DNA of 64,000 nt from Methanosarcina sp. MTP4 (GTDB lineage: Archaea > Halobacteriota > Methanosarcinia > Methanosarcinales > Methanosarcinaceae). The DNA lies in contig NZ_CP009505.1 in the NCBI RefSeq assembly GCF_000970045.1, forward strand, positions 1,922,001 to 1,986,000, written 5' to 3'. This document shows, piece after piece, positions 19,509-24,382 of the stretch. Within the stretch, counting starts at the first letter, position 1. The number at the start of each line of letters is the position of its first letter. The notes under the pieces were generated by a model. The model was not told the DNA's origin and did not search any database. It saw nothing but the letters and a program-made list of their open reading frames with translations. A program made the translations under genes and the position numbers.

Positions 19509-19978
19509 TCAGTGTCCACCTCTAGCAGGTCCGACTCTTATGAGGAAACCTTTTTTCTTTAAGGTGTTCAGGTTCTTTTGGACTGCAGAGGGATTTATTC
19601 CAAGTTTTTCGGCAAGTTCTATTTTTGAAATTGCTGGATTTTTTTGTAGTAAGATCAGGATCTTGCGCTGGCTTTCATTGAGTTCAGACCACCTTTCAGA
19701 CCACCTTTCAGACCACCTTTCAGACCACCTTTCTACCTCCCTTTCTACCTCCCTTTCTACCTCCCTTTCTACCTCCCTTTCTACCTCCCTTTCTACCTCC
19801 CTTTCTACCTCCCTTTCTACCTCCCTTTCTACCTCCCTTTCTACCTCCCTTTCTACCTCCCTTTCTACCTCCCTTTCTACCTCCTTTTCTTCACTTTCTT
19901 CAAAGTACTTTCTCTTAAAAGTAACAATTAACTGGGTCCCGACTTCTTTAAAATCAGCTTCTGAACAGGTAAAGATTC
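19509..19978 (-). pseudogene. C-terminal remnant of an AlbA_2-family regulator with long EVER/WSER linker
   Basis: The homologous part begins ADFKEVGTQLIVTFKRKYF, the end of the HATPase_c_4 region. It passes through about a dozen EVER units and four WSER units (12-bp repeats, 19686-19890) and ends in a winged helix (LQKNPAISKIELAEKLGI, IRVGPARGGH). Upstream of about 19978 the frame continues only through an unrelated GACGCC-type repeat, so the N-terminal three quarters of the gene are missing. Confidence 0.75.
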
Positions 19979-20162
19979 CAAAGGCGCAAAAGACGCCAAA
20001 GACGCCACAAAGATGCCATAATCGCGCCAAAGGTATCATGACCAAAGACGTTAAATGATCATAATCAAGCCTAATGCGCCATAAAAAAAGATGTCATTAA
20101 AAGTCTCCAAAGACGCCACAAACGCGCCAGGGAACTTGACCTTATTGAGCAGTGGGGCAGTT
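19978..20162 (+). repeat. GACGCC-type linker repeats with a short RELDLIEQWG fragment
   Basis: Units of AAAGACGCCAC/GCGCCA recur between 19980 and 20130. At 20129-20159 GGGAACTTGACCTTATTGAG with CAGTGGGGCAG matches the codons for RELDLIEQWG of the intact regulator at about 15007-15040. Another join between a linker-type repeat and a piece of the ATPase domain. Confidence 0.55.
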
Positions 20163-20984: not shown

Positions 20985-21110
20985 ATTAATACCGCAAAAA
21001 CCGCACAAATTCCGCATTAAAGCCGCATAAGCCGCACTAAAGCTGCAAAAATGGATGCCGAACAAGTAACCGAACAAGTAACCGAACAAGTAACCGAACA
21101 AGTACGAAGA
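20985..21110 (+). pseudogene. Linker remnant with VTEQ repeats
   Basis: GCCGCATAAGCCGCACTAAA units (20990-21045) run into four GTAACCGAACAA units reading EQVTEQVTEQVTEQV (21057-21101). It looks like the linker of yet another AlbA_2-family gene with both flanking domains lost. Confidence 0.5.
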
Positions 21111-21209: not shown

Positions 21210-21330
21210 TATGCTAATCCAGATTAGCATAAAAACCAATAATATGCTAATCAGGATTAGCATAAATATCAAAAATATGCTAATCCTAACTAGCATAAAA
21301 GTCAATAATATGCTAATCAGGATTATCATA
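21210..21330 (+). promoter_or_regulatory. Four 22-bp palindromes at exact 33-bp spacing
   Basis: TATGCTAATC..GATTAGCATA-type palindromes start at 21210, 21243, 21276 and 21309. Each is 22 bp with an 11-bp AT-rich spacer. Copies 1 and 2 are the best; 3 and 4 carry one- to three-base changes on one arm. The last ends 75 bp before the ATPase start codon. Spacing of about three helical turns suggests an operator array bound on one DNA face (inference). Confidence 0.75.
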
Positions 21331-21405
21331 TAATGCAGAAATATGATATACCAGTTACACATATAATTCAGGTACACGAAAAACCTTGCTGGACAGAGGG
21401 ATAAA

Positions 21406-22653
21406 ATGTTAAACCTTGCAAAGTACAACTTCCACTGGAGAGAAAGCTTCTTTTATGGTTATGATAAGCGCCGAGACCTCTATTATGAATTGCTTAAATA
21501 CGTTGATGTCCGGCCTGCCGTGGGCGTGATAGGACTTCGCAGGACAGGGAAGACGGTGCTTTTGAAACAGCTCATAGATTACCTGATCGAAAAGGGGGTT
21601 GAGAGAGAAAAAATTCTCTATTTTTCCTTTGATGAAACCGTTTTCTCTCTGGAAGAGGTAATCAGTGAATTTCAGGCGCGGATAGGGGTCGAACTGGGAA
21701 AAGCCGGCAAAGTGTACATCTTTCTTGATGAAGTCCAGAAACTTGAAGGCTGGCAGGACCAGTTGAAGTATTATTATGACAGCTATCCGGAAATCAAGTT
21801 CTTTGTTTCAGGGTCTTCATCCCTATTTTTGAGAAAGAAAGCTGAAGAATCCCTTGCAGGCCGAATTTTCCTCTTCCAGATGCCGGTGCTTAGTTTCAGG
21901 GAATTTCTCCGCTTGAAAGGGGATGAAGAAATGGCTGAAAAACCTGAGCTATTTAAGGAGGCACTGAAAGAGCAGGTGCTCCTCTACGTCAGAAGACAGT
22001 TTCCGGAACTTGTAACGGCAGATGAAGCTTTTATCCATCTGTATGTGGAGTCCATCGTAAACAAGGCAGTCTATGACGATCTCCCTAAAATCTTCCCTAT
22101 AGAATATGAGGACCTGCTCAAACGCATACTCTACATTGTAGCCTCAAACCCTGGGATGATAACGGATTACGAGGGTCTTGCAAATGATCTTGGTATAAAT
22201 CGGATGACCCTTACAAAGTATATCTCCTACCTTGAGAGGGGCTTTCTCCTGCAAAAATGCTATAATTTTTCCAGAAACCTTCTAACAAGCGAAAAGAAGA
22301 CCAAGAGGCTTTATCTCACAAGCCCGAGCCTTGTCGTGGATCTCTGGGAAACCCCTGATTTCGGAAGGGTTGTCGAAAATCTCGTAATCAGCAGTTCACA
22401 GGCCAGGTTCTTCTGGAGGAACGGGCGGGATGAAGTAGACTGTGTGCTCGTCAAAAAGGGTAAGATCATCCCGATCGAGTGCAAATATAAAAACAATATC
22501 AGGGAAAGGGACCTCAGGGGGCTGCTCAAATTCCTGAATAAATTTGAAATTCCCGGGGCTTATGTCATCAGTGAAGACCTTGAAACCGAGAGAGTAATTG
22601 ACGGGAAAGAAATTATAATCATACCTCTCTGGAAATGGCTGCTTGAAAAATAA
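21406..22653 (+). CDS. AAA ATPase with C-terminal nuclease-like (DUF4143-type) domain
   Basis: A 415-residue ATPase: Walker A GLRRTGKTVLLKQL (about residue 43), Walker B IFLDEVQKLEGW (about 105), sensor FFVSGSSSLFL. A winged-helix-like middle (NDLGINRMTLTKYISYLERG) precedes a C-terminal restriction-enzyme-like core, EVDCVLVKKGKIIPIECKYK. Such proteins are abundant in archaea with no settled function; links to mobile elements or defence are often suspected. AGAGGGATAAA precedes ATG 21406. The stop codon TAA lies inside the target duplication of the downstream IS, so the protein end is unaffected by the insertion. Confidence 0.85.
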   Translation: MLNLAKYNFHWRESFFYGYDKRRDLYYELLKYVDVRPAVGVIGLRRTGKTVLLKQLIDYLIEKGVEREKILYFSFDETVFSLEEVISEFQARIGVELGKAGKVYIFLDEVQKLEGWQDQLKYYYDSYPEIKFFVSGSSSLFLRKKAEESLAGRIFLFQMPVLSFREFLRLKGDEEMAEKPELFKEALKEQVLLYVRRQFPELVTADEAFIHLYVESIVNKAVYDDLPKIFPIEYEDLLKRILYIVASNPGMITDYEGLANDLGINRMTLTKYISYLERGFLLQKCYNFSRNLLTSEKKTKRLYLTSPSLVVDLWETPDFGRVVENLVISSSQARFFWRNGRDEVDCVLVKKGKIIPIECKYKNNIRERDLRGLLKFLNKFEIPGAYVISEDLETERVIDGKEIIIIPLWKWLLEK

Positions 22654-22655
22654 AT

Positions 22656-24382
22656 GTAACAATTCACGTTTTAGAAGATTTCCAGATTAATTTTTAAACT
22701 TTGTTCAAAGGTCCGCAACTAAAAAATAATATTTTCAAAACATTTTTTTACTTTGAAAAATATATTAGCCATTCAATGAAGAACGTTCCTCAAGATGAAA
22801 CAAAAAACATGAAGGAACAAGTAAGTGATTTGGAACAAAAAATCACACAATTAAAGGAAGAACTCGAAAAAGAGCGTAACGAGAAGCAAAGCAGTTTGCA
22901 GCACGTAGAAAAGCTCAAAACAGAGAATGACAACCTCACAAAGCAAACTGAACGCTTCAAAGAGCGTGCAAAAAACCTCAGAAATGAAAATAAATATCTC
23001 AAAAAACAACTTGCTCAATTTTAGGGTTCTGCACCTGTTCTCGCATCATCTGACAAGACTTCTGAAGCAGGTGGTGTTCCATCATCTAAAACTTATTACC
23101 GGCGAAATAGACAGGAAGGGCCGAAAAAAGCCAGAGGTGGTCAGCCTGGACATGTTGGACACGGGCGAAAAACACCAATTCCCAACTCTCCTCCTATATA
23201 TATCAAAACGGAAGAATGTCCATGTTGCGGCACTCCTCTGGGCAAACCTGTTAAAGGTGCCAAAGAAACCCGTACCATCACTGAAATCCCAGTTCCAAAA
23301 CCTACTATCTTTGAAATTATTTATCAAAGATATTGGTGCAAAAAGTGCAAAAAGATGGTTCGTGGAGAAGTTTCATGGATACCACCAAACCAGGAGTTTG
23401 GACCTTCTATAGCTTCATGGGTTGCTTATCAGCGAATGTTAGGATTGAGTATAGAAAAGATTCAATCCAGCTTGTATGAGACATATAATATCAAGATTAG
23501 TAGAGCCACTGTGCTTAAACTGGAAAAATGGGTGGCAGATACACTTCAGGAAGACTATGAGAAACTCCATAAAGAAATAGTAAGATCAAAGGCTGTCAAT
23601 GGCGACGAAACGGGATTTAGGATAAACGGTAAGAATAGCTGGTTATGGGGTTTTACTTCTTTATTAGGTACTTACTATAAAGTTTCTCCAACTCGTGGTC
23701 ACATAGTACCGGAAAGAATACTTGAAGGATTTAAAGGTGTTCTGGGAAGAGATGCCTGGAAACCGTATGATGTAGTAAAATGTGCGGGACATCAGCTTGA
23801 CCTTCTTCATGTGAATAGGTGGTTGGAAAGAGCTGAAATTAAACACAAGATAGAACCTCGAAGTCTTTTAACATCCAAGCCTGCAAAAAGGACAAAACCT
23901 GGAAGACCACCTAAAAAGTTCATAGAATTCGTTGATGGTGTTCGATCAATTCTGAAAAGAGCAATTGAGTTCACGCAGAAAGATCCGCCTCCATCAATGG
24001 AAAAACGTAAAAATGCTTGTAAAGAGTTCCAAAAAGAGATGAAGGCTCTACTCAATAGACAATGGACTGATGTGGATGTCATCAGAATATCAAAAGAGCT
24101 TCGAAAGAGACAGTCCATGCTATTTACGTTCATGGAATTTGAGGGAGTACCCTGGCACAATAATGACGCAGAGCGTGCGATGCGTAAAGGAGTATTGCAT
24201 AGGAAAATTAGTGGTGGGAGAAGGACATGGTACGGTGCTGGAGTATTTGAAGTGCTTCTGAGTATTTATGAGACGTCAAAGATGAGGGGGAAAAGATTTA
24301 TGGAAATGTTGAAGGAAAAATTTGAGATACCTCCGAATGAAAGGAGTAGAAATACCTCAGCTTCTTAAACGTGAATTGTTAC
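22656..24382 (+). mobile_element. IS66-type insertion sequence, 1727 bp, complete
   Basis: The terminal inverted repeats GTAACAATTCACGTTTTAGA (left) and its counterpart TCTTAAACGTGAATTGTTAC (right) match at 19 of 20 positions. Both ends are flanked by an exact 8-bp duplication AAATAAAT (22648-22655 and 24383-24390), the target length of IS66. Only a transposase gene is present, as in the ISBst12 branch that lacks TnpA and TnpB. Confidence 0.93.
22776..24368 (+). CDS. IS66-family transposase with in-frame TAG (probable pyrrolysine at residue 83)
   Basis: A single frame of 530 codons from ATG 22776 to TAA 24368 broken only by TAG at 23022-23024. Before it: a leucine-zipper-like coiled coil (MKEQVSDLEQKITQLKEELE). 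After it: GRKTPIPNSPP, the zinc-binding CPCCG..CKKCKK, and the DDE core (NGDETGF near 276, WHNNDAERAMRKG near 460). The sequence between TAG and the next Met reads cleanly as IS66 transposase, so the codon is internal. Methanosarcina inserts pyrrolysine at some UAG codons and UAG-containing transposases are known there. A dead copy with one nonsense mutation is the alternative. Confidence 0.88.

What the first reader, a model, noticed from the sequence alone, without database searches (positions are those of the whole stretch)
21210..21405. Operator-like array of four palindromes at 33-bp period before the AAA ATPase
TATGCTAATC-GATTAGCATA palindromes begin exactly 33 bp apart (about three helical turns). 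Such phased dyads are rare in archaeal promoters and suggest cooperative binding of a dimeric protein, possibly autoregulation or a partition/centromere-like site.
Basis: partly seen in the sequence, partly recalled or inferred. Interest (0 to 1): 0.6.

Follow-up and report, generated by a model that had tools for sequence, protein, structure and literature searches.

The report
Self-read operator array of an ATPase
Upstream of a widespread but uncharacterised candidate antiviral ATPase sits a row of evenly spaced DNA palindromes, and comparison across archaea and bacteria suggests that each such ATPase reads its own private version of them with its own DNA-binding helix, probably to control its own gene.

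Summary
Four 22-bp palindromes start at 21210, 21243, 21276 and 21309, and a degenerate fifth follows at 21342, all 33 bp apart. They lie before an AAA_14/DUF4143 ATPase (PADLOC candidate PDC-S01).

The array belongs to a family-wide feature. Of 143 upstream regions of such genes from Methanosarcinales-order genomes, 76 score z>3 for paired palindromes, and 71 of those have a lag of 32 or 33 bp (24-45 allowed). Downstream controls give 11 of 141, 3 at those lags. The layout recurs in DPANN, Thermoplasmata, haloarchaea and a Bacteroidota subfamily, but not in another Bacteroidota DUF4143 subfamily (0 of 29 at 32/33).

Spacing is kept but palindrome sequence differs from gene to gene. The strongest protein/half-site covariation is residue 266 with half-site position 8. 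Residue 266 is the first residue of the modelled winged-helix recognition helix. Arg266 goes with C8 (16 of 16 cluster representatives, 10 of 39 others); Gln266 with A8 (9 of 9, 11 of 46 others). In Bacteroidota hold-outs Arg266 goes with C8 in 7 of 8.

Best reading: the ATPase binds its own phased array and regulates its own promoter. Binding, cooperativity and repression are inferred. I found no report of this in the papers searched.

The parts
21210..21231 (.). palindrome 1, TATGCTAATC CA GATTAGCATA
21243..21264 (.). palindrome 2, TATGCTAATC AG GATTAGCATA
21276..21297 (.). palindrome 3, imperfect (2 mismatches)
21309..21330 (.). palindrome 4, imperfect (1 mismatch)
21342..21363 (.). degenerate fifth palindrome in exact 33-bp register; outer TATG...CATA kept
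   Evidence: sequence; counted as a copy (L017, 5 copies)
21406..22653 (+). ATPase gene, 415 aa: AAA_14 domain (residues 36-168) and DUF4143 (224-361); PADLOC PDC-S01
22168..22191 (+). first helix of the predicted winged-helix HTH (residues 255-262)
   Evidence: AlphaFold2 model, mean pLDDT 93.8
22201..22239 (+). predicted recognition helix (residues 266-278); Arg266 and Met267 are its first two residues and covary with half-site positions 8 and 6
22375..22485 (+). PD-(D/E)XK-like signature: Glu324, Asp345, Glu358-x-Lys360
   Evidence: Glu324, Asp345, Glu358 invariant and Lys360 nearly invariant in 42 sequences; the assignment to this superfamily is from passages of PMC12988326

Best explanation
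The array is the private operator of the ATPase gene that follows it. The ATPase carries a winged-helix DNA-binding segment inside its DUF4143 region. Two protomers read the two arms of each 22-bp palindrome: Arg266 contacts the G opposite C8, and residue 267 reads position 6. Successive palindromes 33 bp (about three helical turns) apart place bound dimers on one face of the DNA, so that they can contact each other through the AAA/STAND-like modules and shut or tune the gene's own promoter. Shown here: the array, its conservation as an architecture across archaea and some bacteria, its gene-specific arm sequence, and covariation of the arms with the recognition helix. Inferred: physical binding, cooperativity, repression rather than activation, and the role of ATP.
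For: (1) Array upstream of the gene and, with up to 2 mismatches, only one other lone site in the genome. (2) Orthologues at 64-68% identity keep spacing and palindromicity but change the arms symmetrically (TATGCTAATC to TATGGGAATC). (3) 76 of 143 upstream regions of family genes score z>3, and 71 of those have lag 32 or 33 out of 22 lags allowed, against 11 of 141 downstream regions (3 at 32/33) and 14 of 146 other-ORF upstreams (4 at 32/33, namely L018, L083, L128 and L131, loci where the ATPase's own array had scored). (4) In a wider set 58 of 80 score z>3, 56 at 32/33; some of these genes repeat the first set. (5) Half-site positions 5-8 are well defined within a gene (mean 1.16-1.29 bits) but nearly random between genes (0.08-0.22 bits). 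(6) Among 415 protein columns x 11 half-site positions the strongest signal is residue 266 x position 8 (z 8.5), the second residue 267 x position 6 (z 6.1) (107 genes, effective number 52). (7) Arg266-C8 16 of 16 vs 10 of 39 (p 1.8e-7); Gln266-A8 9 of 9 vs 11 of 46 (p 2.6e-5). (8) Hold-out: Arg266 with even palindromes and z>3, C8 in 4 of 5 and in 7 of 8 Bacteroidota genes. (9) The model puts the recognition helix at 266-278. (10) Within ten genomes no two different paralogues with a detected array share a consensus half-site.
Against: No experiment. 67 of 143 family upstreams do not score z>3, and 29 tested Bacteroidota DUF4143 genes of another subfamily have none at 32/33, so it is not universal. 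The earlier whole-segment Mantel test did not single out the helix. In the 68-representative permutation test only the 266 x 8 pair exceeds the 95% level (1 of 300 permutations reached it); the 267 x 6 and 278 x 9 pairs do not. Shuffling representatives does not fully remove phylogeny. Two hold-out Arg266 genes with even palindromes and z>3 break the C8 rule (L329; L376). In the window the array ends 42 bp (or 75 bp, without the fifth copy) before the ATG and no TATA box was mapped.
Confidence: 0.8

Rival explanations
1. The array is bound by the ATPase but as a docking or silencing platform, not mainly as an operator: the ATPase/nuclease is parked on its own DNA in an inactive assembly and released when infection disturbs it.
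For: Same covariation evidence; STAND-like fold neighbours include CED-4 and plant resistosomes; PADLOC PDC-S01, an unvalidated defence candidate; 2 to 5 copies in nearly all genes, 7 in one, more than a simple operator needs.
Against: The array is at the promoter in most genes: median 3 bp from last detected palindrome to the first in-frame start. No evidence of any second state.
Confidence: 0.2
2. Another regulator (for example the nearby winged-helix protein at 19509-20045) binds the array and controls the ATPase.
For: A winged-helix protein is encoded 1.4 kb upstream.
Against: Paralogous ATPases in one genome have arrays of different sequence, which would need a different dedicated regulator each; the arms covary with the ATPase's own helix.
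Confidence: 0.06
3. Partition or centromere-like site.
For: Phased iterated dyads resemble such sites in general (recalled).
Against: The gene lies in a chromosome-sized 4.2-Mb contig; no ParA/ParB among eight proteins scanned; the Walker A is GLRRTGKT, not the deviant ParA type (recalled criterion); many different arrays per genome.
Confidence: 0.03
4. Structural RNA or mobile-element ends rather than protein sites.
For: Palindromes could form hairpins; a relative (G002) lacks the gene but keeps a remnant array.
Against: Arms vary freely with gene but follow the protein's recognition helix, and spacing is fixed at 32-33 bp, which neither hairpins nor transposon ends require.
Confidence: 0.03

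Closest known systems
PDC-S01 (PADLOC phage defence candidate; AAA_14 + DUF4143 / PD-(D/E)XK)
   Same: The window protein matches its models (E 9.6e-64); ATPase plus PD-(D/E)XK as described in passages of PMC12988326.
   Different: Passages read describe no operator, palindrome or DNA-reading helix (0 occurrences of 'palindrom' or 'inverted repeat' in that paper). Defence activity of this protein was not tested.
STAND / archaeal Walker-type ATPases (Paby2304 2qen, SSO1545 2fna, CED-4, plant NLRs)
   Same: AAA core followed by winged helix; VIA Z 16.6 with rmsd 4.5 over 270 residues (2qen), 16.1 with 4.2 over 268 (2fna), 15.8 with 5.0 over 285 (CED-4, 4m9s).
   Different: Here the winged helix appears to read a specific palindrome; the C-terminal domain is PD-(D/E)XK-like.
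Cdc6/Orc1 initiators on origin repeats
   Same: Top Foldseek hit 2qby, E 1.9e-8, AAA + winged helix bound to origin DNA.
   Different: Sequence identity 16%, TM-score about 0.3; here a private site set per paralogue placed at its own promoter, not an origin.
Autorepressors with phased operators (e.g. phage and toxin-antitoxin repressors; recalled, no call)
   Same: Self-operator, dimeric sites, helical phasing.

Membership tests
PDC-S01 (PADLOC candidate defence family) | profile match over the whole protein | tested here: met
   PDLC04787 E 9.6e-64, residues 22-414
PDC-S01 (PADLOC candidate defence family) | anti-phage activity | not testable with these tools
   PMC12988326 passages: experimental validation pending for most PDCs
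PDC-S01 (PADLOC candidate defence family) | PD-(D/E)XK-like C-terminal motif | tested here: met
   Glu324, Asp345, Glu358 invariant, Lys360 nearly invariant in 42 sequences; motif only, the fold of this domain was not compared on its own
winged-helix autoregulator with own operator | sites upstream of own gene, conserved in orthologues | tested here: met
winged-helix autoregulator with own operator | recognition-helix residues determine site sequence | tested here: met
   statistical covariation only
winged-helix autoregulator with own operator | protein binds the site and changes transcription | not testable with these tools
   needs gel shift/footprint and reporter
ParABS partition system | ParA-type ATPase and ParB next to the site | tested here: not met
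   Pfam scan of 8 proteins of the stretch: AAA_14/DUF4143, HTH, transposase, others; no ParA/ParB
Cdc6/Orc1 initiator | same fold | tested here: inconclusive
   shared AAA + winged helix only, TM-score about 0.3, 2qby_B Z 13.4 at rmsd 10.3

The most novel reading that the evidence does not exclude
One of the most abundant uncharacterised defence candidates of prokaryotes is a STAND-like sensor ATPase/nuclease that is kept on its own gene by a private, phased DNA address read through an amino-acid/base code. The address is part of the immune mechanism (parking, sensing or releasing the enzyme), and paralogues in one cell are kept apart by diverged addresses.
Probability: 0.22. Interest if true: 0.9.

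Novelty: new variant of a known kind. Interest (0 to 1): 0.76.

Why it matters
PDC-S01 is reported as the fourth most common defence system across prokaryotes (9,986 in Archaea, 29,494 in Bacteria; [quoted passage not shown] A self-read operator gives a concrete molecular handle on it: a defined DNA ligand for each protein, two specificity residues to mutate, and a prediction about expression. The residue-base pairs (Arg266-C8, Gln266-A8, Gln/Asn267-A6, Lys267-C6) form a small recognition code that can be tested directly and could turn many orphan paralogues into orthogonal DNA-binding modules.

Tried and rejected
Whole-segment Mantel test (57 non-redundant genes, 1,596 pairs): half-site similarity follows overall identity only above 60%, and the best windows (181-201) were not the helix; inconclusive, replaced by column-by-position mutual information. 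Viral origin: no relative found in viral contigs by a close-relative scan; 19 matches in phage records, all under 60% identity. Solved structures by sequence: only 6 hits with E 0.77-0.97, none a relative. NCBIfam: no match. Own-genome search for the L107 array used a pattern with wrong spacing and says nothing. Search for the L072 palindrome: its own site plus one other at 1811311, about 0.4 kb from another DUF4143 match, not followed. TATA-like motifs in the last linker, 35 of 104 vs 7 of 62 other linkers, are suggestive only. Literature: DUF4143 occurs in 1 paper, COG1373 in 7, PF13173/PF13635 in 1, PDC-S01 in 3; also searches. I read the passages found in PMC12988326, PMC13356809, PMC4406477 (plus its section 7) and PMC3861447; the rest only as listings.

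Rows dropped or repeated before counts. One search used 141 loci and 145 ORFs; one search tested 143. One locus (L065) enters twice. Near-identical orthologues (L017-L019) are all counted there. Several loci are the same genes as earlier loci (e.g. L203 = L019, L204 = L048, L206 = L020, L208 = L051, L212 = L025). One search skipped 9 of 89 ORFs. For one search, 7 loci were re-centred by hand from the linker to the repeat palindrome (L048, L020, L022, L023, L204, L206, L207), and 6 loci repeating earlier genes were removed. One search used 107 of 108 even-palindrome genes (those with at least 2 copies); the 27 odd palindromes were left out. Not all matches listed were fetched (100 regions, of which 3 are context). 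and one search list more matches than the 30 loci each that were scanned.

Full report
What is there. Four 22-bp palindromes lie at 21210, 21243, 21276 and 21309 with 11-bp linkers, so exactly 33 bp apart. A pattern search finds only these four in the window with up to 3 mismatches, against 0.01 expected, and one further lone site in the 4.21-Mb genome with up to 2 mismatches. A fifth, degenerate copy follows in register at 21342-21363. The next gene, 21406-22653, is a 415-aa ATPase with Pfam AAA_14 and DUF4143. It matches PADLOC's phage defence candidate PDC-S01.

Orthologues. Two same-genus genomes carry the gene at 99% and 97% identity with the array before it. A more distant one, at 81%, has TATGTTAATC-type palindromes. 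Orthologues at 64-68% identity from other genera and families have the same layout directly before the start codon, but the arms read TATGGGAATC...GATACCCATA: the change is symmetric in both arms. One same-genus genome (G002) lacks a close ATPase copy and keeps only a remnant of about one and a half palindromes beside the same histone-deacetylase-like neighbour gene (the deacetylase name is recalled from the protein sequence, not from a call).

Family-wide architecture. I collected 145 family ORFs from 141 loci, the window's genome and order-level relatives (regions), and scored the upstream 220 bp of 143 for two palindromes at any lag from 24 to 45, against 60 dinucleotide shuffles each. 76 of 143 gave z>3; their lags were 33 (48), 32 (23) and five others. 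Regardless of z, 106 of 143 had their best lag at 32 or 33. Controls from the same loci: 220 bp downstream of the same genes, 11 of 141 with z>3, 3 at lag 33; upstreams of other ORFs, 14 of 146, 4 at 32/33. Those four are L018, L083 and L131 (lag 33) and L128 (lag 32), loci where the ATPase's own array was found, so they are most likely the same arrays seen from a divergent ORF.

Breadth. A scan of named genomes gave 80 loci from DPANN lineages, Thermoplasmata, Hydrothermarchaeum, Nitrospirae, Actinobacteria, Spirochaetes, Bacteroidetes and others. Of 80 testable upstreams 58 had z>3: lag 33 in 53, 32 in 3, other in 2. Plasmid and phylum loci gave 16 of 38 with z>3, 14 at 32/33, including Segatella copri, Parabacteroides and two haloarchaea; some of these repeat genes of the first set. 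In Bacteroidota the subfamily close to the Parabacteroides protein gave 13 of 24 with z>3, 12 at 32/33, while the best DUF4143 hits of the same phylum gave 1 of 29, none of the z>3 at 32/33. The array therefore marks one branch of the family and is not a side effect of the method.

Who reads the palindromes. Within a gene, half-site positions 5-8 are well defined (mean information 1.16-1.29 bits, from few copies), yet between 108 genes they carry only 0.08-0.22 bits. For 107 genes with even palindromes (effective number 52) I computed mutual information between every protein column and every half-site position. The highest corrected score of all was residue 266 with position 8 (z 8.5), the second residue 267 with position 6 (z 6.1). 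The AlphaFold2 model (mean pLDDT 93.8) has helices at 255-262 and 266-278 and a strand at 282-287: a winged helix whose recognition helix begins at residue 266. The covariation step used no information on where that helix lies.

The code. With one representative per 62%-identity cluster (55), Arg266 goes with C8 in 16 of 16 (10 of 39 without Arg), Gln266 with A8 in 9 of 9 (11 of 46), Gln267 with A6 in 8 of 8 (9 of 47), Asn267 with A6 in 5 of 5 (12 of 50), Lys267 with C6 in 3 of 4 (3 of 51), Arg267 with T6 in 14 of 16 (10 of 39). At 45% clustering Arg266-C8 remains 9 of 9 vs 9 of 26 (p 7e-4), while Gln266-A8 falls to 2 of 2 vs 8 of 33 and is not significant. Arg-guanine (opposite C8) and Gln-adenine are the usual side-chain contacts (recalled). 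Shuffling half-sites among 68 representatives reached the top score in 1 of 300 runs; the other pairs were below the 95% level.

Hold-out. In 59 new genes, 26 had z>3, 24 at 32/33. Of five with Arg266 and an even palindrome at z>3, four have C8; L329 does not. Among weaker ones (z 1-3), three of four do. In Bacteroidota, Arg266 genes with even palindromes and z>3 have C8 in seven of eight (L364, L368, L370, L372, L373, L375, L382 yes; L376 no; L368 and L370 are near-identical). Genes with odd-width palindromes were not scored for the rule.

Mechanism. Distinct paralogues in one genome have distinct half-sites: in 10 genomes none of 76 pairs exceeded similarity 0.6, although the one duplicated locus (L065) shows that this cut is strict. 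The site set of the window's gene occurs nowhere else in its genome as an array. The last palindrome typically ends a few bases before the start (median 3, n=97), and the last linker holds a TATA-like motif more often than the others (35 of 104 vs 7 of 62). I conclude that the ATPase binds its own array through its winged helix, with dimers three turns apart, and controls its own promoter, most simply by repression. Binding, oligomerisation and the direction of regulation are inferred.

Relation to known things. Fold matches are STAND-like and origin-binding ATPases: Paby2304 2qen (Z 16.6, rmsd 4.5, 270 residues), SSO1545 2fna (Z 16.1, 4.2, 268), CED-4 (Z 15.8, 5.0, 285), Cdc6/Orc1 on DNA 2qby (Foldseek E 1.9e-8, TM about 0.3). 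The C-terminal part was barely tested by those matches; its PD-(D/E)XK nature rests on conserved residues and on PMC12988326. PDC-S01 is a named candidate defence family, so the protein is a member by profile; the array and code are what is new. A Thermus DUF4143 gene, TT_P0211, rose 6.6-fold with plasmid in an Argonaute-proficient strain (PMC4406477, section 7), a hint of regulated expression, without known link to an array.

Noticed in passing
window 19509-20045 (-): Winged-helix (HTH_24/MarR-like) protein with a long tandem EVER/WSER repeat N-terminal to the HTH.
   Followed up: no
window 22701-24368 (+): A coiled-coil ORF and an IS66-type transposase lie between the ATPase and the deacetylase-like gene; in G001 and G003 the ATPase end and that gene lie close together, so this looks like an insertion in the window's lineage.
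   Followed up: partly
L007 / G002:C40:24431: Remnant of about one and a half palindromes without the ATPase, next to the same deacetylase-like gene: an array left behind after gene loss.
   Followed up: partly
L004 1501-1520 (G000:C1:1442457) and G003:C135:9171: A lone near-matching palindrome in two genomes; in L004 it lies between two ORFs; possible second target.
   Followed up: no
window 21058-21104: Three to four tandem copies of a 12-bp unit (CCGAACAAGTAA) upstream of the array.
   Followed up: no
L200 (Methanomethylovorans plasmid pMETHO01): A family ATPase with a 32-bp array lies about 2 kb from a viperin-family antiviral gene.
   Followed up: no
G056, G030, G052: Genomes with 25 to 32 family ATPase matches each, a striking lineage-specific expansion.
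   Followed up: partly
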